Shown here in pieces: positions 10,301-64,000 of a stretch of 64,000 nucleotides of DNA; within the stretch, counting starts at the first letter, position 1, and each line of letters begins with the position of its first letter. The notes below the pieces were generated by a model. The model made no database searches. It saw only the letters and a program-made list of their open reading frames with translations, and was not told the origin of the DNA. The position numbers and the translations under genes are program-made. This DNA is from an uncultured Bacteroidales bacterium (lineage in GTDB: Bacteria; Bacteroidota; Bacteroidia; Bacteroidales; F082). Location: contig ONFF01000019.1 in the NCBI GenBank assembly GCA_900317055.1, forward strand, positions 56,734 through 120,733. The letters run 5' to 3'.

Positions 10301-10490
10301 TGGTCCAGCCTTCAGGCAGTTGGCCATCATTAAAGTCGAAAACGGTTTGTTCAAAAAAATCAGGACTCACCCAGGTGGCATACCCCGTAGCACCCACTTC
10401 CAGTTTGAACGGTTTCTGCGCCTGAACATGCACCACCCCTCCCGCCATCAGCAGGAGCACAAGCAGGGCATAAATCTTCAAGTATTTCAT
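7341..10490 (-). CDS. Large secreted T9SS cargo protein with anchor-J-like and FN3-like modules
   Basis: 1049 residues. Signal peptide MKYLKIYALLVLLLMAGG ending at VHVQAQ. Residues about 45-205 resemble the choice-of-anchor-J/MAM-like domain (FDFNDGQLPEGWTIYSEG, later FHFKSCYANDHFAIDNVTIL). Fibronectin-III-like segments follow, with repeated phrases on how the protein strands open (VELTWDTPYE, LTWDKEDD, ELHWGEDL). A second jelly-roll-like part lies near residues 750-870. The last 80 residues are a type A T9SS sorting domain (LYPNPTTGKVTVVG, EVMVYNALGQLV, GVYLLCITDAEG) that should be cleaved on export. It is last in a three-gene operon; its ATG overlaps the stop of the preceding gene (ATGA, 10487-10490). 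Role unknown; the domain set suggests surface adhesion or hydrolysis support. Confidence 0.85.
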   Translation of the reverse strand: MKYLKIYALLVLLLMAGGVVHVQAQKPFKLEVGATGYATWVSPDFFEQTVFDFNDGQLPEGWTIYSEGNIVEPWRFETPTSNPQLNFPPDGSTYLYAQSNQLNSTDYMEEFFHSPAIDLHGYKRAFVMFDYDYMEDWSDTEGECQMRSDGVLWSWSNLFWPWNAQSGRFLGEITEMISHHFEMRFHFKSCYANDHFAIDNVTILGETEEPISYDVLGFRLWLDGALLGDVTENEYQIDTDTLQDGHDYTLSVASILTDGISDTTAFTFTYSSCSNFDGVYEFHGEFIDSTHVELTWDTPYEIFKSKDGENQKWFIGEPDVITHPGAGYNDGWDVSALHDGLTAYGFNADKEAGFKVMDKFTIPEGAPTSFAGLRFYVYEGPTPTSTITAAYLTIYDGDPLNGGSPIGGGDGINCLYSGWYDCYEWAHIYRAGEDDFSDVSRPVFYTLAHLEHVGMGMELEPNHTYWFVASFKGSLRDDVHVIPVTRLGETTTGEARIYSEATGWQPMIDPGTQTQQGIAFDIIGYIPLSFSVSYSDIFRDGELIAHGVNQCYYIDENVPHGIHTYSIQNVYYDHLFFDYPTKACLQSVEVRPCYPPKNLEVSTEPLNGTDELNRLTWDKEDDIPLRDDVKTYYEVYRKSILEDQYALIGTLAKDNTSDSFEYLDTVPQGNYYYKVNDYNIFPTGSCQSGFANQYGECVIIGSIAAEADWCQGTDGVELHWGEDLFKAHCQYENGEFIDAVGYEGNLSWGFKATGADMLGSFVKSVSLYSVADGEYDILIYSGYNSPTTIVWQQTVQLTGVNQWHTVNFEHPYQIMTWPIWIIIHQQGIENPAAYAHDDGSTDDGRWVCLDGYWYKPEMNGSFMVRADIDNQMEGEDLLQLEEPSMGELHYNLYRSHDNGSYEKIAQFPYPGYWSHVRYFDPIDETEYSCYNYKVTITFRDEYGHLCESQPAPNAEDPSIDWAEVCDTWSISEIVENKNLILYPNPTTGKVTVVGVEASEVMVYNALGQLVKIVRGTNEINVAGLVEGVYLLCITDAEGRNHTARVVVKE

Positions 10491-10630
10491 CTAATCGTGA
10501 TTTTGTTCGTGTAAACTTTACCTTCCGCATCCATGATGCGCACCAGATAAACCCCTTCCACCAAATCCGCTACATCGATCTCATTCGTCCCCCGAACCGT
10601 CTTCACCAACTGCCCAAGGGCATTGTAGAG
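10441..10630. repeat. Junction repeat copy 1 (signal-peptide start plus CTD end)
   Basis: About 190 bp spanning the ATGA overlap: the signal-peptide codons of the downstream gene and the last 45 or so codons of the upstream CTD. Compared base by base with 12111-12300, I count 5 differences in the first 50 bases and 8 in the next 140. Confidence 0.9.
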
Positions 10631-12160
10631 CTGCACCTCATCAACCAAAGCATCTTCGGGCAACACAATCCGTACAGTATTGTTAGTTGGGTTAGGATAA
10701 ACCTGCGAGGTCCTTTCTTGCGGCTGCTGCCATTCCGGCACTTGATAAGTCGTGTAATCCACTGTGTCCGTGACATGAAGAACCCAATAATTCATAGTGT
10801 GACCATCAAAAAGTGTGTCGTTGGTGCAATAATAGTCGCCATTGTGCTCGCCAAGCATGGTTTCGGAGGTTGCTGCAATGACGTATTCCCTGTCACTCTC
10901 TTTTAAAACATCGCCAATTCCTATCCTCGAGCACATGGTGTGTCCTATGGCTCTTTCCCAAAGCAAGTTGCCGTTGGCATCTGTGCGGAACATCCAAATT
11001 TTTCTGCCCAAGTCACCAGTGGGATAGATTAGGTTTTGGGCACTTTGTACATCGCCGTCTTTCGATTCGGTAAGTCCAAACACGGTAAATCCGCCGTCTA
11101 CATTTTGGAAAACCCGCCAGGGGGTATCAAACCCGCTACCGCCATAGCAACGGCTCCAGAGTATGTTGCCATCCATGTCGGTACGCAAAAGCCACACATC
11201 GGTGGTGCGGACACCGGTATGCCAATAGCCTAAATGGTAGTTGGCGTCTTGGAGATCTCCATCCTCGGAATCACTGTTTCCTGCTAGGATTAAGCCATTG
11301 CCAAGTTCCATTAAACAATAACTGTTCTCACTATTGCTCCCGCCATAGCATCGGGTCCATTCCACCTCACCTTGGTGGCTGAGCTTGACGAGGATGTTGT
11401 CATTGGTATAGAGCCCCACATGTATGTCGCAGGCCTCGATGGAGCCATCCCCTATGGTATAGCCCGACAGGAAGGCATAGTAACCTCCATCGGCTGCGTT
11501 GGAGAGATGGTGTATGAATTCAGTTCCCGTCGTACCAATCGAAATCTCCCACTCCACCTGCCCAAGACTATCAAGCTTGGTAATCCATCCATCGCTTTGA
11601 CCATAGTAGAGTCCTATGTCTCCTCCCTCCGAAAAGGTCAGCTGCGCCCCTCCTATCACACCTCCATCGGTGGTGGCACAGCCATATTTCTCGTAAGGGA
11701 AGCTGTAGTTCTCGTTCCCCAAGTTCCGTGACCACAGCAATTCTCCTTCCGAATCGTACTTGGCCATGCAGAGTGAAGCTTTTCCCGTTGTAGGATATCT
11801 TCCTTCACCAATAGAATAATAGACATTCTTATTGGCTATTGATCTATCTAAATCAAGAGGATAGATTGCTGGATAGCAAGTCTGCCAAAGCAGCTCACCA
11901 TGGTAACCGATTTTTAGGAGCCAGTTCCCTGTAGCTTGTTGACCGAAATCGCAAGTGACCATCCCAGAAATAGGCGAACGCCCAACTCCTGCGACAAGAT
12001 ACCCATCATCAGTGGGTGCTATTCCCCAAGCTTCGTCATCGCAGTTCGGCAATTGACCACCGTAGGTCTGCTGCCAATCGATGCGAAGTTGGGCTTGAAG
12101 ATGAATCCCTCCCGCCATCAGCAAGAGTGCAAGCAGGGTGTAAATCTTCAAGTATTTCAT
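10487..12160 (-). CDS. Secreted T9SS cargo protein with propeller-like repeats
   Basis: 557 residues. Signal peptide MKYLKIYTLLALLLMAGG ending at IHLQAQ, nearly identical to that of the next gene. The body has at least five copies of a motif of the form K/T-D-x-x-G-x-x-x-W-x-x-x-x-GG (for example TDMDGNILWSRCYGG, LDSLGQVEWEISIGT, LSHQGEVEWTRCYGG), as in PQQ/delta-60-type beta-propellers. The C-terminus is a type A T9SS CTD ending TNKITIR. ATGA overlaps join it to both neighbours, implying coupled translation. The body and start of the CTD closely resemble the partial gene at the right end of the window (DYTT.QVPE, VYPNPTNNTV). Substrate unknown. Confidence 0.85.
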   Translation of the reverse strand: MKYLKIYTLLALLLMAGGIHLQAQLRIDWQQTYGGQLPNCDDEAWGIAPTDDGYLVAGVGRSPISGMVTCDFGQQATGNWLLKIGYHGELLWQTCYPAIYPLDLDRSIANKNVYYSIGEGRYPTTGKASLCMAKYDSEGELLWSRNLGNENYSFPYEKYGCATTDGGVIGGAQLTFSEGGDIGLYYGQSDGWITKLDSLGQVEWEISIGTTGTEFIHHLSNAADGGYYAFLSGYTIGDGSIEACDIHVGLYTNDNILVKLSHQGEVEWTRCYGGSNSENSYCLMELGNGLILAGNSDSEDGDLQDANYHLGYWHTGVRTTDVWLLRTDMDGNILWSRCYGGSGFDTPWRVFQNVDGGFTVFGLTESKDGDVQSAQNLIYPTGDLGRKIWMFRTDANGNLLWERAIGHTMCSRIGIGDVLKESDREYVIAATSETMLGEHNGDYYCTNDTLFDGHTMNYWVLHVTDTVDYTTYQVPEWQQPQERTSQVYPNPTNNTVRIVLPEDALVDEVQLYNALGQLVKTVRGTNEIDVADLVEGVYLVRIMDAEGKVYTNKITIR

Positions 12161-15947: not shown

Positions 15948-15996
15948 TTTATTTGATGTTTAATTGTTGATTGTATATTCGTTTAATTGTTGAAGC

Positions 15997-16020
15997 GGCC
16001 CTTCGACAGGCTCAGGGACC
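15997..16020. repeat. Dispersed imperfect palindrome, CCTTCGACAGGCTCAGG family
   Basis: Core CCTTCGACAGGCTCAGG followed by gacc, in the groES/MATE intergenic region. Other copies are at 20929-20945, 20961-20988, 24667-24693 and 61881-61907, with a decayed copy at 19116-19138. Confidence 0.85.
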
Positions 16021-16119
16021 GCGACCTTTCAGAACGGCTTTTGCTTGTCACATTTCGTGCCAAAGTGGAAAATGGCAGGGTTTTGTCAGTCGGGGTGACA
16101 AAGTGACACAAAAAGGGCT

Positions 16120-16139: not shown

Positions 16140-17483
16140 ATGACGGAGCAGCCCGTCAGGCGGCTGATCCTCAAGATGGCTGTGCCGACCATCATTAGCA
16201 TGCTCGTAACCACCATTTATAATATGGTGGACTCGTTCTATGTGGGTCATCTGAGCACCGAAGCCGTGGCTGGCGTGGGCGTTTCGTTTGCCTACATGGC
16301 CTTTATTAATGCTTGCGGCTTCTTTTTCGGGCATGGCTCGGGCAACTACATCTCGCGTGCCTTGGGTGCAAAACAAGGACAGAATGCAGGGCGTATGGCA
16401 GCCACGGGTTTCTTCTCCCCTTTGATTTTGGGTGCTATTGCAGGCCTCATCTGCATGATCTTCATCTCGCCCTTGTCGCGGGCCATGGGCGCCACCGATA
16501 GCATCCTCCCCTACGCCAACGACTACCTGCGGTTCATCTTGATTGCCACGCCTTTCATGATGTCGTCGCTGACGCTCAACAACCAGTTGCGACTACAAGG
16601 CAATGCCCGTTTCGGCATGATTGGCATCGCCTCGGGTGCCATCCTCAACATCATCCTCGACCCGATCTTTATCTTTGTGCTTGACTTGGGTGTCAGTGGC
16701 GCCTCGTTGGCCACGGCGGTGAGCCAGTGTTTCGGCTGGTGTGTGTTGCTTTGGGGCACTTCGCGACCAGGGAATGTGCATATCAAACCGAAGAACTTCT
16801 CTCCTACCCTATACTATTACAAAGAAATCACGCGAGGCGGATTGCCTTCGTTGGCACGACAGGCTTTGTCGGTGGTGGCCACCATCAGCCTCAACCGAAT
16901 GGCGGTGCATTATGCCTTGCCCGGCAACGAAGCCTCCACCGTTGCGGCCTTCACCATCGTTTCGCGCATCACCCTATTCTGTTTCGCCATCGTCATTGGT
17001 TTTGGACAAGGGTTCCAACCTGTTTGCGGCTATAATTATGGTGCCAAACTCTATGCGCGTGTCAAGGAGAGCTATATGTTTTGCATCACACTTTCCACGG
17101 CATTTCTGATTGTCCTTGCAACCGTTGTCTATATCTTCGCTCCTGACATCATCTCATGGTTCCGTGGCGAGGATCCAGAGCTCATCCGCGTGGGCAGTCA
17201 GGCCTTGCGCTGGCAGTGCATCGCCTTCCCGCTGATGGGTATGTGTACTGCGACCAACATGCTGTTCCAAAACATCGGCTACACCTGGCAAGCCACCTTA
17301 CTCTCAATGTGCCGTCAGGGCTTGTATTTTCTACCCGCGGTCTTCCTAATGTCGTGGCTGTGGGGCATCACGGGTCTCGAAGCCGCGCAAGCCATCGCCG
17401 ACGTTTGCACCTTTTTGACTTCTTTGCCGTTTGCTATTTGGATTAGCAGAGCGCTCACCGCGAAGTCCCAAAAGTGTCCATAA
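16140..17483 (+). CDS. MATE family multidrug/sodium-coupled exporter
   Basis: Inner-membrane antiporter of the multidrug and toxic compound extrusion family. 447 residues with about 12 membrane helices in two pseudo-symmetric halves; RRLILKMAVPTIISMLVTTIYNMVDSFYVG is a typical MATE start, and NIILDPIFIFVLDLGVSGASLAT marks the end of the first half. The ATG at 16140 is chosen because the promoter lies just before it. The last codons (SQKCP and the stop) lie inside the direct repeat that starts at about 17470, so the natural C-terminus has probably been replaced when that repeat arrived. Substrate unknown. Confidence 0.93.
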   Translation: MTEQPVRRLILKMAVPTIISMLVTTIYNMVDSFYVGHLSTEAVAGVGVSFAYMAFINACGFFFGHGSGNYISRALGAKQGQNAGRMAATGFFSPLILGAIAGLICMIFISPLSRAMGATDSILPYANDYLRFILIATPFMMSSLTLNNQLRLQGNARFGMIGIASGAILNIILDPIFIFVLDLGVSGASLATAVSQCFGWCVLLWGTSRPGNVHIKPKNFSPTLYYYKEITRGGLPSLARQALSVVATISLNRMAVHYALPGNEASTVAAFTIVSRITLFCFAIVIGFGQGFQPVCGYNYGAKLYARVKESYMFCITLSTAFLIVLATVVYIFAPDIISWFRGEDPELIRVGSQALRWQCIAFPLMGMCTATNMLFQNIGYTWQATLLSMCRQGLYFLPAVFLMSWLWGITGLEAAQAIADVCTFLTSLPFAIWISRALTAKSQKCP

Positions 17484-17550
17484 CTCGAAATTTTGTTGAG
17501 ATATGGACACTTTTGAATGTTATTCTCGGAACAAATCATCCATAACAACC
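17470..17550. repeat. 81-bp direct repeat copy 1 with hairpin (3' flank of the ATPase gene)
   Basis: Shares 75 of 81 positions with 19014-19094 by my count, with the first 54 bases identical. Contains an inverted repeat with arms AAAAGTGTCCATA and TATGGACACTTTT separated by about 20 bases, then the last codons of the ATPase gene. Confidence 0.92.
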
Positions 17551-19013: not shown

Positions 19014-19094
19014 AAAAGTGTCCATAACTCGAAATTTTGTTGAGATATGGACACTTTTGAATGTTATTGTCGGAATAAATTGGCCATGACAACC
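19014..19094. repeat. 81-bp direct repeat copy 2: stranded 3' end of a second ATPase gene
   Basis: On the minus strand the right part reads VVMANLFRQ and stop, against VVMDDLFRE and stop in the intact gene, followed by the same hairpin. No reading frame for the rest of a second ATPase is present. A further GGACACTT arm at 18995-19002 can pair with the AAGTGTCC at 19016-19023. This repeat, a decayed copy of the CCTTCGACA family (19116-19138) and a near-palindrome at 19234-19258 (CTTCCGAATT...AATTCGGAAG) fill the 339-base gap 18948-19286. Confidence 0.88.
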
Positions 19095-19286: not shown

Positions 19287-21551
19287 TTACCGCGAAGTCA
19301 CTTTATAACGCGTGACTTTCCCATCTTTCCAAGTACATTCCACCACCTTATTGCCTCGGGCGCATAGCCCTTTGAAATGACCGTCTTTCCATACCGATGG
19401 CAAGGCGGGCAGCAATTCTATTTCACCGTCATGGCTTTGCAACAGCATCTCGGCGATGCCTGCCGTGCCGCCGAAGTTACCGTCAATCTGGAAAGGCGGA
19501 TGGGCGCAGAAAAGGTTGGGATAGGTGCCTGCTGAATGGCTTCCGTCAAGATGGACGGCCGGTTCGAGTAAGTTCCTTAAAAGCTGATAGGTATGGTCGC
19601 CGTCGTGAAGTCGTGCCCAGAAGCAGATCTTCCAAGCCCTCGACCAGCCCGTGCCTTCGTCGCCACGACGACGCAAGGTCTCGCGACAGGCATCCATCAG
19701 TTCGGGTGTCTTGGATTGGGTCAGCATCGTACCAGGATACAAACCAAAGAGATGCGACACATGACGGTGCTGAGGTTCCACTTCCTTGTAGTCTCTCAGC
19801 CATTCCTGCAAATAGCCCTGCTCGCTGACCTGCATAGGTGGGAAATGGGATTTTGCGTCGCAGAGGCTGTCGGAAAAAGCCTCATCGATACCCAAAATCT
19901 CTGCCGACTGACAAACCGCATCGTACAACTCACTTACAATCTGCACATCCATAGTGCTGCCCATGCACACACTGACAGCAATGCTGTCGTTAAGCCAGAA
20001 AGCGTTTTCGGGTGATGTAGTCGGGGCGGTGACAAGCCAGCCGTGTTCGGGTTCCTCTATCATCGCATCAAGGAAAAACTGCGCCGCCTCTTTCATTAAT
20101 GGATAGGCTTCTCGCAAAAATGCCGTGTCCTGCGTGAACTCAAAATGCTGCCATGCGTGGAGAGCAAGCCAAGCCCCACCCGTGTTGGTCGCGCCCCATG
20201 AAGGATGCTCGCCAGGTGCTGTGAAGCCCCACGGATTGCACACCGCATGGGCAGTCCAGCCTCGGGCACCGTAGAAGTCACGGGCCGTCTTACTTCCCGA
20301 AGGCATCAACCCTTCAGCAAAGTGAATTAATGGTAGATGCAGCTCCGAGAGGTTGCAGACCTCGCAGGGCCAGTGGTTCATCTCCACATTGATATTCAGG
20401 TGATAGTCGCCGTTCCATGGGGTTTGGATGGTGTTGGCCCACAGTCCTTGCAGGTTGGGTGGCAGAAGGCTCTCGAAGGTGGAGCTGATGAGTAGGTAAC
20501 GCCCGTAGTGGAAATAACAGGTCGGCAGCCATGGGTCGTCGTTGACAAGGAAGTCTTTCCAATGGTCTTCCAAGGTCAGGTCTTGTTTTTCTTTTGGGTC
20601 GCCAATTACCAACTCCACGCGGTCGAACAGCTCGTGATGGACTTTCAGATGGTCGTTTTTCACGGCCTCAAAGCCTTTTACCATGGCATTTTGCAGGTGT
20701 TCGTTGACATACGCTTCGGGGTCGGTGCATAAAAAATCAGTGGCGGCACAGAAGTAGATAATCGTTTCATTGTTAGATACAACTATTTGTGCCTTAGCAT
20801 AATATCGCATCCCTTCCACACCCTCCACATTGCTGTCCAGCTGGCCAAACATAATGACACTGTCAGCATAGGTGAAAACCTCGGCTTTTTCAGGACGGGA
20901 GAGATTTATCGTAAAAGAAGAGCAGGTCGTTGAGCCTGTCGAAACGCCGTCAATATTTACGGTCGGCCCTTCGACAGGCCCAAGGGCCTTAACTTTTATT
21001 ACCGCAACATCATCTGGGCGGGAGATGAAAGCCTCGCGTTCGTAATGTTGACCACCTTTATCAAAAGAAACCTTGTGGATGGCATCATTAAGAAAAAGCG
21101 TTCGCCTATAATTGGTTACGGGATCAGCATTGGGATATTGATAATCTATAGTCATATTGCCCAAGGTCTGGTAACAACCAAAAGGCACCTTAGCGCCTTG
21201 ACCGTGGCCTGAACCTTGTCCCCCACAAACGAAAGTCTCATACATCAGGTTTTGGGCTTCATCGTTCTTGCCCTCCTTCAACAAGCGTTGTATTTCCGGC
21301 AACGACTCCAAAGCCAAAGGATTGCTGTCATCATTCGGTGCGCCCGACCATAAGGTGATGTCATTCAGCACAATGGTTTCTTTGTCAATGCCGCCATCAG
21401 GCATCATGCCCAGGTGGCCGTTGCCCAGGGGGAAGCACTCCTCCCAGATTTGGGCGGGAGCAGTGTGGGTGAGGTTCCACTGCGGCTGGGGGAACTGCTT
21501 TTGGCAACCGCAAAACATGAATAAGGGGATAATGAAAAGAAGACGCTTCAT
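19287..21551 (-). CDS. GH95-type alpha-L-fucosidase/galactosidase lipoprotein
   Basis: Glycoside hydrolase family 95, which removes terminal alpha-1,2-L-fucose (or L-galactose) by inversion. 754 residues from the ATG at 21549-21551. Signal peptide with lipobox MFCGC. N-terminal beta-sandwich begins [26 protein letters not shown]; the (alpha/alpha)6 barrel carries [20 protein letters not shown] and [11 protein letters not shown], matching the conserved Asn-rich loop and the Glu (general acid) region of the family, and [13 protein letters not shown]. Two palindromic repeats (20929-20945 and 20961-20988) are inserted in frame in the N-terminal domain (residues near [19 protein letters not shown]), apparently without breaking it. 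Cell-surface or periplasmic; probably used on mucin or plant glycans. Confidence 0.92.
20929..20988. repeat. Two opposed copies of the CCTTCGACAGGCTCAGG palindrome inside the GH95 gene
   Basis: 20929-20945 carries gttgagcctgtcgaaac and 20961-20988 carries ggtcggcccttcgacaggcc. They face opposite ways and keep the reading frame open. Confidence 0.85.
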
Positions 21552-60112: not shown

Positions 60113-61987
60113 TTAACCATTTGTTTCCTTTGCAAAATCAAGAAGTGTTGTAGGCAGAGGAGCCTCATTTTTAAAAATAGCCTTCATCTTTCGGGCACGA
60201 TGCGACACCGTGGGATAAGCTTTCTGCATCATAGCCGCAACGTCGGCATCCGAAAGGCCGAGCAGATAGAGGCAGCAATAGTCAAGGTCGCCCTTGGTGA
60301 GCTCGGGATAGGCCTTGGCCAAACGGACGGTGAACTGCCCGAAGTGGCGGTCGGCAGCCTCGCGCAACGCCATCACCTGTTCCTTGCCCAAGGCATAGTC
60401 CTGATATAGCTTGCAGTCCATCTGCGCCTTGAACTGTCCTTCGTTCACCCGCTCCATGATGAGGCGACAGATAGGCTCTTCGTTGAACGACACCGCTTGC
60501 GCCTCCTGTTTCGGCGCAACGTTGCCCGCCTGTTGCCGCATCTGTTCCTTCAGCTCGCGCAGTTCCTGGTTGCTCCGTTTCAGCCTCCCCGACATAGATG
60601 CTTTCTCCAAGCGGTGCGCCTCTCGTTCAGCTTCCATCTGCTGGCTCGCCGCGTCGCGCTGCTGCCGCATCTTGCGCCTATAAAACAGCCAAGCCAACAG
60701 CACCGCCACTACAACGAGAGCGCACACCACAACGATCATCCTGTTCCTCCGCAGCCGCGCTGCCTGCTGCCTTTCGGCTTCGGTTCGCCCTTGCTTCCAC
60801 TGCAAATGTTGTTGAAACAGGTCGTTCAATTGGGAGACCCGCTTTTGGCTTTCGGCTGCTGCAGCTACATCTTCTATGATGAATTGGGCATATTGGTTGG
60901 CTTTCAAGGTGTCGCCCTCACCAATAGCGATGTCATGCAAAGCCTTTGCTGCAAGTTTTTTTCCAATGTCGTCATTTGAAAAATCAAATACTGCTTTCAA
61001 ATATACCTTGGCAGAATCGAATTGTCTGGCATTATGATAAATGTCGCCAATGGTTGAATATCGGTTTATTCTTTCAATATTGCTTTCGGATAGGGCTGCC
61101 ATGCTTTTCAGATTGTCCAAGGCTTTTATGGTGTCGTGGAGATGATAATAATCAAACAAAGATTGTGAAGCCATCAAATCCCTGTAAACCATAGTATTTC
61201 TGTCATGCAAGGCATTAAACGCCGCATCATAATAGAAAACAACGCTGTCTGGTTTTTGCAATATATGATATTGTAATCCAATCTGATACAAAATATTGGC
61301 TTTGGCGTTAAGCGAAGTCGGTGCAATCTGGTTGTATAACAAGTACTGCTTGGCACAATAAATGGCGGATTCTGGCATAAGTTGGCCTTTGAACATATCA
61401 ATAAGACGGCCGTATGTCAAGGCCATAAACCGCGCCTTCTTATCCACCAACTCCTTTTCCGAGAAATGGCTTTCCATGATCCGCAAGGTGTTGAGGTATT
61501 CCGTACAGGCGTTCGCCAAATCCCCTTGTTCATAGAATCCCACACCATTCATATAATGGGCGCGGGCGGAGAGGAAAACGATGTTGTCGTTTCGTGTCGG
61601 AGATAGCGGGTCTGCGCCCGCTATGAGGCTTTTTGGGGTGGGGGTGTCGTTCAAGGTGAAGTTTAGGCTGTCGAAATATGCTACCGCTTTCAACAGATCC
61701 TTCCTATTGCTCTGTACATAGTCATTCTTAAACAGCAGCTCCGCAATCAGCACCTGGCAATAATGCCCCTCAAACTCACCAAGGCTATCCGCCGCCTCAC
61801 TCCCCGCAAACTCCATCATCACCGCCAAGGCGCTGTCAGGCCGCTGCCACATCAAACTGTCGATGGTCGCCAACTCTTTGGTCGGCCCTTCGACAAGCTC
61901 AGGGACCTCAACTTTAGTAGGTTTGGAGCAAGCCACCAGCATGGCCAGCCCAAACAAAAAGCTCACTATGTGCAAACACCGTTTCAC
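60113..61987 (-). CDS. Membrane TPR protein with C-terminal HTH, putative regulator
   Basis: 624 residues from a GTG at 61985-61987, three bases after the promoter. Order: lipoprotein-like start (LAMLVAC, Cys20), about ten TPR-like units (for example NILYQIGLQYHILQKPDSVVFYYDAAFNAL, STIGDIYHNARQFDSAKVYLKAVFDFS in pieces), one membrane helix (RMIVVVCALVVVAVLLAWLFY), a basic coiled coil, and a DNA-binding-like end (LTKGDLDYCCLYLLGLSDADVAAMM, HRARKMKAIF) resembling a LuxR/sigma-4 type HTH. Typical of Bacteroidota periplasm-sensing regulators. Two palindromic repeats are inserted in frame (residues PELVEGP near 30 and LIAGADPLSP near 135). Confidence 0.84.
   Translation of the reverse strand: MKRCLHIVSFLFGLAMLVACSKPTKVEVPELVEGPTKELATIDSLMWQRPDSALAVMMEFAGSEAADSLGEFEGHYCQVLIAELLFKNDYVQSNRKDLLKAVAYFDSLNFTLNDTPTPKSLIAGADPLSPTRNDNIVFLSARAHYMNGVGFYEQGDLANACTEYLNTLRIMESHFSEKELVDKKARFMALTYGRLIDMFKGQLMPESAIYCAKQYLLYNQIAPTSLNAKANILYQIGLQYHILQKPDSVVFYYDAAFNALHDRNTMVYRDLMASQSLFDYYHLHDTIKALDNLKSMAALSESNIERINRYSTIGDIYHNARQFDSAKVYLKAVFDFSNDDIGKKLAAKALHDIAIGEGDTLKANQYAQFIIEDVAAAAESQKRVSQLNDLFQQHLQWKQGRTEAERQQAARLRRNRMIVVVCALVVVAVLLAWLFYRRKMRQQRDAASQQMEAEREAHRLEKASMSGRLKRSNQELRELKEQMRQQAGNVAPKQEAQAVSFNEEPICRLIMERVNEGQFKAQMDCKLYQDYALGKEQVMALREAADRHFGQFTVRLAKAYPELTKGDLDYCCLYLLGLSDADVAAMMQKAYPTVSHRARKMKAIFKNEAPLPTTLLDFAKETNG
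61604..61625. repeat. GCGGGTCTGCGCCCGC-family palindrome inside the TPR-HTH gene
   Basis: Arms ATAGCGGG and CCCGCTAT around tctgcg; same core as in 27396-27415. Read in frame as LIAGADPL. Confidence 0.87.
61881..61907. repeat. CCTTCGACAAGCTCAGG palindrome inside the TPR-HTH gene
   Basis: gtcggcccttcgacaagctc then agggacc; in frame as VPELVEGPT, right after the lipobox. Confidence 0.87.
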
Positions 61988-61990
61988 GCG

Positions 61991-61999
61991 GCAAAAATA
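61991..61999 (-). promoter_or_regulatory. -7 promoter element of the TPR-HTH regulator gene
   Basis: The minus strand reads TATTTTTGC, then CGC and GTG: transcript would be leaderless, as for recG. Confidence 0.65.
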
Positions 62000-62099
62000 C
62001 TCAAAATCCAGCAAATTAAATAAAAAGCCACCAAAGGCCTTAAACCGTCTCCATGTCGCCGATGGGAATGGCTAGGCTTTCGATGGCTTTATCTAAACC

Positions 62100-63590
62100 T
62101 CAATCTACCACCACCAACCGCACATCGCTTTTGATCAAGCCTTGCTCCATCAGCAGAAACAGCCGCTTCGTCTTGTCTGAATTATAGCTTTGGGCGGCGA
62201 TGCCGGCAACACCTTTGCCGTCGATGACATTCACGGTCTCGTTCCCCTCCTGGTCCAAGATGATCTCGCGGAGCTTGGTCTGCAAAAACCGCGGGTCTTG
62301 TGAGGCCGCCACATCCGATGGATATTTGTACTTGGAGCAGACCATCGAATAATAGCAAAGGTTACCATTGATGTCGAACAATTCATCGGTGACCACTTCT
62401 TTGGGGCCGATAATCTCATTACTGTAAGGCTTCCTCCATAATAGTTTTCCGTCAGCATCGAACATGTTCAGGATGCTACCTTGTTTCCCGTACTGGTAAT
62501 ACGCACCCGTATGAGTGCTAATGACCTCATCATAATTATAAACACCTGTCACACAGACACGGCCATCGTTCATGAAATAGGGCTGAAAATCAATCCAATG
62601 AACCTCATTGTCTTTGCTCTTGCCTTCCTTGGCATTAAGGTAAACGTCTACGTCTTCATTTGTGAAAGGATACATATCGGAAGTGACAACGGCTTGCTCT
62701 TTCATGTCGAATACGGTAACATACATCCCGCAAAGGGCTGCGTTTCTATTGAACAAAAACATCCAGTCACCGTATTTCTCGCCTTTCAGCGAACCCGTAA
62801 CCCAAAGACGATTGCCGTTCAAAGCAAGTTCCGCACTCCCGATGTTGACGGGCAAAGGGAATGCCATTTGTTCTTCTCCTTCGTTCGACATGACCACGAG
62901 CGCCGCTATTGCCTTGTCTTCGGTGTCGGCAAGATAATAGCCTGCCAATATGACCCTGCCGTCGTCAATAGGCACGAAATCGGCAAAATGGAGATCCGTA
63001 TCCCTGCTCCATAAGGTCGCACCTGTCTTGTTGTCCAACATCACGACCTTCCACACGCTGGGTGCGCCATTCTTGCACTGGTCCAATCGCACCAGCGCAC
63101 GATGGGATCGGTCAGGAGATAGTTTGCTGGAAACCGTAAGCATATCCTTCAGCTTGACAGGATCCATGTTGATGACATGCTTTTTCCCGTCTTCGAAAGG
63201 CGAGAATCCGATGTCATCGGTCGAGGCCAATGTCATGTCCGACTTCTTTATCGTGAATTTTTCGAGGCGATAGCCCTCCGGCTCGCACTTTGCGGTAACC
63301 AGCTCGATGTTTTCGCCAAACACTCCTCCATAAATGGGGAAACGCACCGACAGCCCAGACTTGTATTCCTTCTCCACTTTCAGCGACAAGTCGGTCTTGC
63401 TGAAACCAAGGACGGCTGTCTTAATGGAACAGTCAAAGAAATAATAACAGGACTCGTCCTCTCCTATATACATTGCCTGATTGGTGAGTTTCACACCTTT
63501 GGCCAAAGGGCCTTGCTTGATTGTCGGCATTTGGGCGAATGAAAAACAAGTGTAGAATACACTTAACAGAACTAATAATTTTGTTTTCAT
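62100..63590 (-). CDS. Exported protein of unknown function
   Basis: 496 residues. Signal peptide MKTKLLVLLSVFYTCFSFAQ. The rest is beta-rich with many DxxG turns (MLDNKTGATLWSRDTD, MFDADGKLLWRKPYS, VLAGYYLAD-like GRVILAGYYLAD), suggesting a propeller of about seven blades as in PQQ-like proteins. No CTD at the C-terminus (ends VRLVVVD), so not a T9SS cargo by that route. Its ATG overlaps the stop of the CTD remnant upstream (TAATG). Confidence 0.8.
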   Translation of the reverse strand: MKTKLLVLLSVFYTCFSFAQMPTIKQGPLAKGVKLTNQAMYIGEDESCYYFFDCSIKTAVLGFSKTDLSLKVEKEYKSGLSVRFPIYGGVFGENIELVTAKCEPEGYRLEKFTIKKSDMTLASTDDIGFSPFEDGKKHVINMDPVKLKDMLTVSSKLSPDRSHRALVRLDQCKNGAPSVWKVVMLDNKTGATLWSRDTDLHFADFVPIDDGRVILAGYYLADTEDKAIAALVVMSNEGEEQMAFPLPVNIGSAELALNGNRLWVTGSLKGEKYGDWMFLFNRNAALCGMYVTVFDMKEQAVVTSDMYPFTNEDVDVYLNAKEGKSKDNEVHWIDFQPYFMNDGRVCVTGVYNYDEVISTHTGAYYQYGKQGSILNMFDADGKLLWRKPYSNEIIGPKEVVTDELFDINGNLCYYSMVCSKYKYPSDVAASQDPRFLQTKLREIILDQEGNETVNVIDGKGVAGIAAQSYNSDKTKRLFLLMEQGLIKSDVRLVVVD

Positions 63591-63669
63591 TATATCGTGA
63601 TTTTATTTGTGTAAACTTTTTCTTCAGCATCCGCAATGCGCAGCAAATACACCCCTTCTACCACTCCGC
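63591..63669 (-). pseudogene. Leftover C-terminus of a TNKITI-type T9SS CTD
   Basis: The minus strand reads ...VVEGVYLLRIADAEEKVYTNKITI and stop, matching the CTD ends of the 10487 and 12157 genes (LVEGVYLVRIMDAEGKVYTNKITIR). It is not attached to an open gene: the preceding gene ends at 63670 in another frame with a different CTD. Confidence 0.85.
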
Positions 63670-64000
63670 TCATTCCCTCAGCACTTTCCGTGTGAGGCAC
63701 ACTTCCGCATTGCGGATTCTCAGCATGTACATCCCTTTGGGCAAGTCGCCCATCTCCATCCAACCACCCTTGCCGCCGAAGGTCTTTGTGGCCACCACCT
63801 GGCCGCTCATGTTGATGAGTTCCATTTCCGTGGCCTCGGCCTCGTTGGGAAGCAGCACGCAAACCGTGTTGTTCGTCGGGTTGGGATAAACCTCCACCGC
63901 TGCCTCTTCCTTTGGCATTGGTCGTTCCGGCACCTGCAAGGTGGTGTAGTCCACCGTATCAGTGATGTGGAGAATCCAATAATCCAACGAACGGCCGCCA
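63670..64000 (-). CDS. T9SS cargo protein, C-terminal part (cut by the right edge)
   Basis: The last 110 residues of a gene whose start lies beyond the window. Sequence LDYWILHITDTVDYTTLQVPE, then VEVYPNPTNNTVCVLLP closely follow the 10487 gene (NYWVLHVTDTVDYTTYQVPE, QVYPNPTNNTVRIVLP), so the two are paralogues. After that point the two CTDs diverge: here ELINMSGQVVATKTFGG and a different end (CLTRKVLRE) against EVQLYNALGQLVKTV and TNKITIR. Downstream lies the leftover of the old end. Confidence 0.87.
   Translation of the reverse strand, partial: GGRSLDYWILHITDTVDYTTLQVPERPMPKEEAAVEVYPNPTNNTVCVLLPNEAEATEMELINMSGQVVATKTFGGKGGWMEMGDLPKGMYMLRIRNAEVCLTRKVLRE

What the first reader, a model, noticed from the sequence alone, without database searches (positions are those of the whole stretch)
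63591..63700. A T9SS sorting-domain end stranded behind a gene that has switched to another sorting domain
The partial cargo gene at 63670-64000 is a paralogue of the 10487-12160 gene up to and including the PNPTNNTV stretch of the CTD, after which it carries a different second half. Directly behind its stop, out of frame with it, lies the missing piece (VEGVYLLRIADAEEKVYTNKITI). The simplest reading is that a new CTD end was inserted or recombined in front of the old one. That would be a genetic scar of CTD exchange, and would mean cargo proteins can change their sorting or anchoring signal while keeping the body.
Basis: partly seen in the sequence, partly recalled or inferred. Interest (0 to 1): 0.8.

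Follow-up and report, generated by a model that had tools for sequence, protein, structure and literature searches.

The report
Leftover tail of a lost neighbour gene
A short piece of DNA behind a surface-protein gene is most likely the leftover end of another, lost surface-protein gene; the surviving gene did not change its export tag, although such tags and protein bodies are swapped in other genes of related bacteria.

Summary
Behind the partial T9SS cargo gene (stop 63672-63670, minus strand) lies an out-of-frame 27-codon piece (63673-63593, MSGVVEGVYLLRIADAEEKVYTNKITI), homologous to the last third of type A sorting domains. It runs straight into the start of the 496-aa ORF (62100-63590).

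Its body plus LTRKVLRE end ("gene A") match as one piece in 12 loci of 9 other genus genomes. Against the five close copies there is no step near 63850 (three distant copies step at 63888 but carry the same kind of end). None of 13 inspected genes with this end has the tail behind its stop, nor do 8 other full-length copies of the 496-aa ORF have it in front. The best reading is a relic of a third cargo gene, joined out of register to gene A's stop (3-5 nt microhomology) in a variable cargo slot. The lost gene itself was not seen.

The parts
63670..63999 (-). 3' end of gene A (T9SS cargo; body paralogous to 10487-12160; type A sorting domain ending LTRKVLRE); runs off the contig, 5' part on contig C10
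   Evidence: TIGR04183 50.1 bits, cut-off 23; 95-97% continuous with five relatives
63670..63850 (-). last 181 nt of the sorting domain, also 95-97% identical behind an unrelated LRR body (G000 contig C31, G083, G059)
   Evidence: LRR_5 in the C31 gene
63593..63673 (-). stranded sorting-domain tail, 27 codons (ATGA overlap with gene A's stop; TAA 63592-63590 overlaps the next ATG)
   Evidence: TIGR04183 positions 50-71 of 72 at 13.0 bits, below cut-off on its own
63668..63672 (-). junction: TGAGC, shared by gene A's stop region in G060 and by ..TTGAGCGG.. in CTD-coding tails; TGAG is shared with G074 and only TGA with the other TGA-ending copies
   Evidence: the role as a join is inferred, the lost gene is not seen
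62100..63590 (-). 496-aa ORF with a signal-peptide-like start; its 8 other full-length genus copies are not preceded by the tail
10487..12160 (-). paralogue of gene A's body with a KITIR-type end

Best explanation
The stretch 63593-63673 is the last 27 codons of a vanished T9SS cargo gene (X) that stood directly in front of the 496-aa ORF. Gene A sits in a variable cargo slot between the tyrosyl-tRNA synthetase side and the 496-aa ORF. The DNA between gene A's stop codon and the middle of X's sorting domain was lost, probably by a join at 3-5 identical bases (TGA to TGAGC), roughly 80 nt out of register. An in-register crossover between the two sorting domains would have left one hybrid gene; this join left A's whole end plus X's tail. 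Either X was A's neighbour in a tandem array and was deleted (favoured slightly, about 55:45), or A came in over X with homology at leader plus signal peptide on the left and microhomology on the right. Shown: gene A's end belongs to gene A in its relatives, the tail is of another cargo gene's kind, the slot is variable, and both contig ends carry gene A. Inferred: X at this spot, the join mechanism, and deletion against displacement. The setting is a genus whose T9SS cargo genes recombine at two repeated segments, the leader plus signal peptide (about 24 codons) and the sorting domain.
For: Gene A with the LTRKVLRE end matches over query 16-329/333 in 12 loci of 9 other genomes. Identity of the five close copies to G000: 91-96% before YPNPT, 95-100% over the next 38 nt, 97-99% over the last 181 nt. 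None of 13 other LTRKVLRE genes inspected (10 with gene A's kind of body, 3 with an LRR body) has a KITI tail in the 90 nt after the stop; 7 have a conserved 48 nt and then gene B, 6 a repeat-like sequence. The 8 other full-length 496-aa ORF copies have no tail before them; in 173 family genomes no match spans the whole tail plus ORF start (4 candidates scored per genome). C10 carries the SHMT/TyrRS flank followed by gene A's 5' part; the same flank precedes a slot and then the 496-aa ORF in G074, G066, G004 and G028, empty in G066 and G004. In-place recombination: G055 against G083 (GroEL-RseP address) keep leader, signal peptide and CTD while the first body changes, breaks at ATG+72 and 8 nt before YPNPT; G053 against G000 C31 do the same at another address.
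Against: No genome shows an intact gene X in front of the 496-aa ORF, so the parent arrangement is inferred. A microhomology of 3-5 nt is weak evidence by itself. The junction lies 331 nt from a contig end and 254 residues of gene A are missing from the assembly. In the three more distant copies tested (G075, G053:C83, G047) identity to G000 does step at YPNPT, from 68-71% before to 92% and then 87-91% after, so CTDs of this kind evolve more slowly than the body or are exchanged among themselves. Two of the 12 loci (G060:C5, G007) are frame-broken. Only one such stranded tail is known; other short-frame tails in the genus are frame-broken or nearly bodiless cargo genes.
Confidence: 0.83

Rival explanations
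1. One reading: a gene with this body and a KITI end received a new CTD end in front of its old one, which remains as the tail.
For: Paralogues with the same kind of body carry KITIR (10487-12160) and MEKVMVR (C11) ends. CTD-end exchange on a kept body is real in other genes. Distant copies of gene A step in identity at YPNPT.
Against: Gene A with this end is shared by 12 loci in 9 other genomes, the distant ones included; no step near 63850 against five close copies; no tail behind 13 relatives.
Confidence: 0.04
2. Gene A displaced X by homology-facilitated illegitimate recombination: leader/signal peptide as anchor, microhomology on the other side, X's tail left downstream (a sub-case of the best explanation, as against plain deletion).
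For: The slot leader (200 nt) of G000 is 86-92% identical to that of G074, G028, G066 and G004, and the block shared with G074 runs to ATG+71, after which the bodies differ. The same model is published for T6SS effector displacement (PMC5361080, passages seen).
Against: The same picture follows from deletion inside an array; donor and recipient are not seen; the leader is also similar upstream of gene A elsewhere (G055 83%, G060 68%).
Confidence: 0.37
3. Assembly chimera: the contig tip wrongly joins gene A to the 496-aa ORF.
For: The junction is 331 nt from the contig end; gene A is broken over two contigs.
Against: C10, the contig on the other side of the slot by synteny, independently carries gene A's 5' part beside the TyrRS flank; a 3-5 nt join is too short for a k-mer assembler (recalled).
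Confidence: 0.05
4. The 27-codon piece is kept as a translated linker: ATGA with gene A's stop and TAATG with the next start pass ribosomes on to the 496-aa ORF, which lost its own leader.
For: The frame is open from ATG 63673 to the TAA that overlaps the next ATG; in G066 and G004 a leader stands directly before that ORF.
Against: Seen in one genome only; overlaps of a CTD gene's stop with the next start are usual in these arrays; 27 codons in one genome allow no test of selection.
Confidence: 0.06

Closest known systems
T9SS type A sorting domain (TIGR04183 / PF18962)
   Same: Gene A's end and the cargo paralogues tested match above cut-off; the tail aligns with TIGR04183 positions 50-71 of 72
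   Different: The tail alone is below cut-off and has no cargo body or signal peptide
T6SS effector displacement leaving orphan immunity genes in Vibrio cholerae (PMC5361080, passages seen)
   Same: A conserved segment on one side, an illegitimate join on the other, a remnant of the former occupant left downstream
   Different: Here the remnant is a 27-codon gene end, not a working gene; T9SS cargo rather than effector modules; plain deletion fits as well
Domain rearrangement and allelic exchange in Porphyromonas gingivalis surface proteins (PMC5266723, abstract and passages seen)
   Same: T9SS-dependent surface proteins vary as modules
   Different: There catalytic and adhesin domains of large proteins; here whole bodies between signal peptide and CTD, and CTD ends on a kept body, in tandem arrays
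Rhs C-terminal displacement (named in the passages of PMC5361080; the paper itself not read)
   Same: Displaced gene ends left behind a changed gene
   Different: Opposite polarity: Rhs keeps its 5' region and changes the 3' region

Membership tests
T9SS type A sorting domain (TIGR04183) | Visible gene A end matches the model above its cut-off | tested here: met
   50.1 bits against 23; PF18962 44.4 against 27
T9SS type A sorting domain (TIGR04183) | Stranded tail matches above cut-off on its own | tested here: not met
   13.0 bits against 23, positions 50-71 of 72; no Pfam match: a fragment, not a domain
T9SS cargo | Signal peptide plus C-terminal sorting domain in one gene | tested here: inconclusive
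   5' part on C10 MKATRIYTLLVLLLMVGGVTMQAQ (signal peptide judged by eye), 3' part; the middle is not assembled; intact relatives have both
T9SS cargo | Actually secreted and anchored by T9SS | not testable with these tools
   needs an experiment
   one history with the five close copies; distant copies step at YPNPT but carry the same kind of end
Displacement by homology-facilitated illegitimate recombination | Homologous anchor on one side | tested here: inconclusive
   leader and signal peptide shared with the slot in relatives; whether it served as anchor is unknown
Displacement by homology-facilitated illegitimate recombination | Short microhomology at the other side | tested here: inconclusive
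   TGAGC with G060, TGAG with G074, TGA with others; parent gene X not seen
Displacement by homology-facilitated illegitimate recombination | Remnant of a former occupant downstream | tested here: inconclusive
   63593-63673 is a cargo-gene tail; that its gene once occupied this slot is inferred

The most novel reading that the evidence does not exclude
In this Bacteroidales genus T9SS cargo arrays work as a diversification system: repeated leader/signal-peptide and sorting-domain segments serve as recombination borders, so that bodies are changed between fixed export signals and export-signal ends are changed on fixed bodies. The stranded tail is one misregistered product of that traffic.
Probability: 0.3. 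Interest if true: 0.68.

Novelty: new variant of a known kind. Interest (0 to 1): 0.42.

Why it matters
The scar itself is small and ordinary in kind. What it points to is more useful: within one genus, near-identical T9SS cargo bodies are found with different CTD ends, and one CTD is found behind unrelated bodies. In P. gingivalis loss of the last two residues of RgpB stops export, and a CTD from Tannerella forsythia did not work in its place (PMC11285876, passages seen). Natural pairs with the same body and different ends allow a direct test of which CTD ends are interchangeable and what they change in sorting or anchoring.

Tried and rejected
CTD switch in gene A: rejected. Donor of the KTFGGKGG/LTRKVLRE half: G000 C31:44322-44548 looked like one at first (91%), but there the same CTD follows an LRR body and leads into gene B as in relatives. 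Gene A's kind of body with this end is the more widespread form (12 loci against 3 LRR loci), so the LRR body is more likely the changed part. A decayed tail in G074 before the 496-aa ORF (match from query 381): 143 of 2000 mononucleotide shuffles score as well, not accepted. In the same test G066 and G004 were reached by only 15 and 9 of 2000 shuffles; their alignment covers the leader, so I do not read it as a tail, and it stays unexplained; G015 and G028 were reached by 586 and 937. Short-frame tails elsewhere (G018:C18, G074:C45, G053:C46, G054:C36): the G018 case is a signal peptide plus CTD with about ten residues between, G074:C45 has a like tail, and the other two appear frame-broken; none is a parallel. 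No structure prediction was run; it would not decide the question.

Limits and dropped rows: one search scored at most 6 candidates per genome and at most 4, so their absences are not exhaustive. Not counted among the 12 continuous loci: two partial matches (G077:C20 query 16-201 at a contig end, G024:C32 query 115-318), the LRR loci, and G052:C62 (query 277-331). Absence of the tail before the 496-aa ORF was seen directly in the 8 other full-length copies; a ninth hit (G095) covers only residues 465-496. Of the 12 loci the downstream DNA was inspected in 10 (not G058:C177 and G074:C58), and identity by segment in 8. The cargo-gene counts come from loci fetched because they matched, not a random sample: 69 genes detected, 7 dropped by filters on start, body length and named ids (62 used), and one more (G053_L055_5388, whose tail duplication puts its last 150 nt out of register) dropped in the recount. 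With it the counts were 32 of 1706 and 63 of 119; without it 32 of 1652 and 60 of 116.

Full report
What is there. The window is the last 64,000 bases of contig C29 of its genome (G000), and the partial gene runs off the contig. On the minus strand the gene's last 109 codons end in CLTRKVLRE and TGA at 63672-63670. One base earlier, in another frame, ATG 63673 opens 27 codons, MSGVVEGVYLLRIADAEEKVYTNKITI, closed by TAA at 63592-63590; its last base is the first base of the ATG of the 496-aa ORF 62100-63590. The piece aligns with positions 50-71 of 72 of the T9SS type A sorting domain at 13.0 bits, below the cut-off of 23; the gene end itself scores 50.1. In G000 the piece matches 12 other places at E <= 1e-5, all in frames of 267-892 aa. 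'Propeller' is used below as a working label for gene A's body: the only support is a weak match of the paralogue to a beta-propeller lipoprotein model (30 bits, cut-off 400).

Did this gene switch its end? No. In the genus (99 genomes including its own) the DNA from query 16 to 329-333, body plus CTD, matches as one piece in G060, G055, G053, G084 and G074 at 95-97% and in seven further loci (G075, G053:C83, G047, G060:C5, G058, G074:C58, G007) at 79-84%: 12 loci in 9 genomes (two of them, G060:C5 and G007, frame-broken). In the five close copies identity to G000 is 91-96% before YPNPT (63888), 95-100% over the next 38 nt, and 97-99% over the last 181 nt. In three more distant copies (G075, G053:C83, G047) identity does step, at YPNPT: 68-71% before, 92% and then 87-91% after. 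These copies still carry the same kind of end, so the step speaks of a slower or shared evolution of the CTD, not of a switch in G000. In the 90 nt after the stop, 13 other genes with this end (10 propeller-bodied, 3 LRR-bodied) show either a conserved 48 nt leading into a second cargo gene (7) or a repeat-like sequence (6), never the KITI tail.

Whose tail is it? The 496-aa ORF has 8 other full-length copies in the genus; none has the tail before it. In a search of 173 genomes of the family (at most 4 candidates scored each) no match spans the whole tail and the ORF start. Matches to the ORF begin at or up to 21 nt inside its ATG, except G074, which begins 30 nt before it (a stretch no better than 143 of 2000 shuffles); matches to the tail end 6-13 nt beyond that ATG position. 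The closest tail by protein is G083:C16:55352 (89%, end of a 447-aa cargo gene). The tail is thus the end of some other cargo gene that once overlapped the start of the 496-aa ORF, as stops and starts of these arrays do.

Where does gene A sit? Its residues 1-220 are on contig C10:4-669, at the contig's start, and residues 221-474 were not found. Beyond them C10 carries tyrosyl-tRNA synthetase and serine hydroxymethyltransferase genes (names tested on the G074 copies). In G074, G066, G004 and G028 the same flank is followed by a slot and then the 496-aa ORF. The slot is empty in G066 and G004, where a leader stands directly before the ORF, and holds a 249-aa ORF in G028 and a 377-aa ORF in G074. 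In G015, G054 and G088 the TyrRS side is not in the fetched DNA; G024 has another context. Both contig ends therefore put gene A in the same variable slot, which speaks against a chimeric contig. The C10 flank is 90% identical to G074 through leader and signal peptide and stops being similar at ATG+71, where the bodies differ.

How the join may have formed. The CTD-like sequence reaches into the TGA that is also gene A's stop: tails elsewhere read ..TTGAGCGG.. and gene A in G060 continues TGAGCTAATG, so TGAGC is common to both sides; G074 shares TGAG and the other TGA-ending copies TGA. An in-register crossover between two sorting domains would give one hybrid gene. Here the join is roughly 80 nt out of register, so gene A's whole end and the last 27 codons of the other gene survive. 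Deletion of a neighbour and displacement by an incoming gene both fit; I put them near 55:45. The lost gene has not been seen, so this step is inference.

The wider setting. At the GroEL-RseP address (names) G055 and G083 share the leader and signal peptide (88%, ending at ATG+72), then have unrelated first bodies (propeller and BspA-type LRR), then share CTD, 48 nt and the next signal peptide (93%). The second gene repeats this (bodies unrelated by blastp; CTD block 89%). The third gene's bodies are unrelated too, but its 78% CTD block is no closer than to a neighbour's CTD (77%), so it adds nothing. At a second address, behind a ~600-aa gene and before gene B, G053 (propeller) and G000 C31 (LRR) share the signal peptide (97%) and the CTD block (90%) around different bodies. 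G083 looks like G059 without its first gene, with the two alignments overlapping inside the signal peptide, as a crossover between two signal-peptide segments would give. Of 61 cargo genes from the fetched loci, 32 of 1652 pairs with unrelated bodies share at least 90% of the last 150 nt, 60 of 116 pairs with related bodies share less than 75%, and of 36 pairs whose bodies are at least 80% identical 12 do, among them one with bodies 99% identical. For 34 of 62 genes the nearest CTD in another genome sits on an unrelated body, 33 of the 61 that have a related body elsewhere in the set (this count includes the gene dropped). One case in detail: bodies 92-95% identical in protein across types, ends KITVQ and KITKR in G000 and G060, LEKVMVR in G053 and G074; identity of the last window is 42-45% between the types and 90-97% within. 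These loci were fetched because they matched, so the counts show that exchange happens, not how often; pairs are not independent events.

Comparison with print. The nearest published mechanism is displacement of T6SS effector modules, for which homology-facilitated illegitimate recombination was proposed and which leaves remnants of the former occupant downstream (PMC5361080, passages). Modular variation of T9SS-dependent surface proteins is known in P. gingivalis (PMC5266723, abstract and passages). By their listings (titles and abstract starts; 20 of 28, 2 of 2, 1 of 1, 0, 12 of 16, 12 of 660 and 12 of 38 papers) the searches showed no paper on exchange of T9SS cargo bodies between signal peptide and CTD; the library holds only part of the literature.

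Organism. The 8 named records carrying a relative of the 496-aa ORF are MAGs or uncultured Bacteroidales/Bacteroidia, among them bacterium F082; two bear ruminant sample names and several RUG codes (recalled as rumen genomes).

Verdict. A real but ordinary scar: most likely the tail of a lost neighbour, not the old end of this gene.

Noticed in passing
L055:5388-6959 (G053): A cargo gene whose CTD tail is tandemly repeated by about 25 nt (CTTTTTGGAGAAGGTGATGGTGAGG twice), so that the frame reads about 30 aa past the usual end.
   Followed up: partly
L091:3999-4382 (G018); like tail in L092:174-254 minus (G074): Very short cargo gene: signal peptide and sorting domain with about ten residues between them; the L092 copy was seen only by its tail.
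   Followed up: partly
L021:9309-10790, L053:6759-8231, L055:5388-6959, L057:5433-6914: Near-identical cargo bodies with two kinds of CTD end (KITVQ/KITKR and LEKVMVR): natural exchange of the CTD end.
   Followed up: yes
L056:6829-7632 (G084) and L057:6911-7711 (G074): Gene B bodies 99% identical but last 150 nt of the CTD only 71% identical.
   Followed up: partly
L021:6370-7648 (G000 C31) and L066 (G083): An LRR cargo gene plus its CTD and the next signal peptide, 97.6% identical at two different chromosomal addresses; the shared block begins at the ATG and ends in the next gene's signal peptide.
   Followed up: partly
window 17470-17550 and 19014-19094: 81-nt repeat, 93% identical, with an inverted repeat AAAAGTGTCCATAACTC..GAGATATGGACACTTTT; purpose unknown.
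   Followed up: no
window 61880-61915 (also 15993-16028, 20961-20996): Short repeat (..GGCCCTTCGACA..) that at 61880 lies inside the ORF 60113-62014 and codes PELVEGP there.
   Followed up: no
behind gene A's stop in L055, L057, L068, L069, L070, L072: A repeat-like sequence (TCGTCGCTTCGCGTC..TTGCGA and variants) in place of the usual 48-nt spacer.
   Followed up: no
G000:C6:4-1341 and G000:C25:65-358: A second, more distant gene with gene A's kind of body may also be split over two contig starts (38% and 40% identical to gene A).
   Followed up: no
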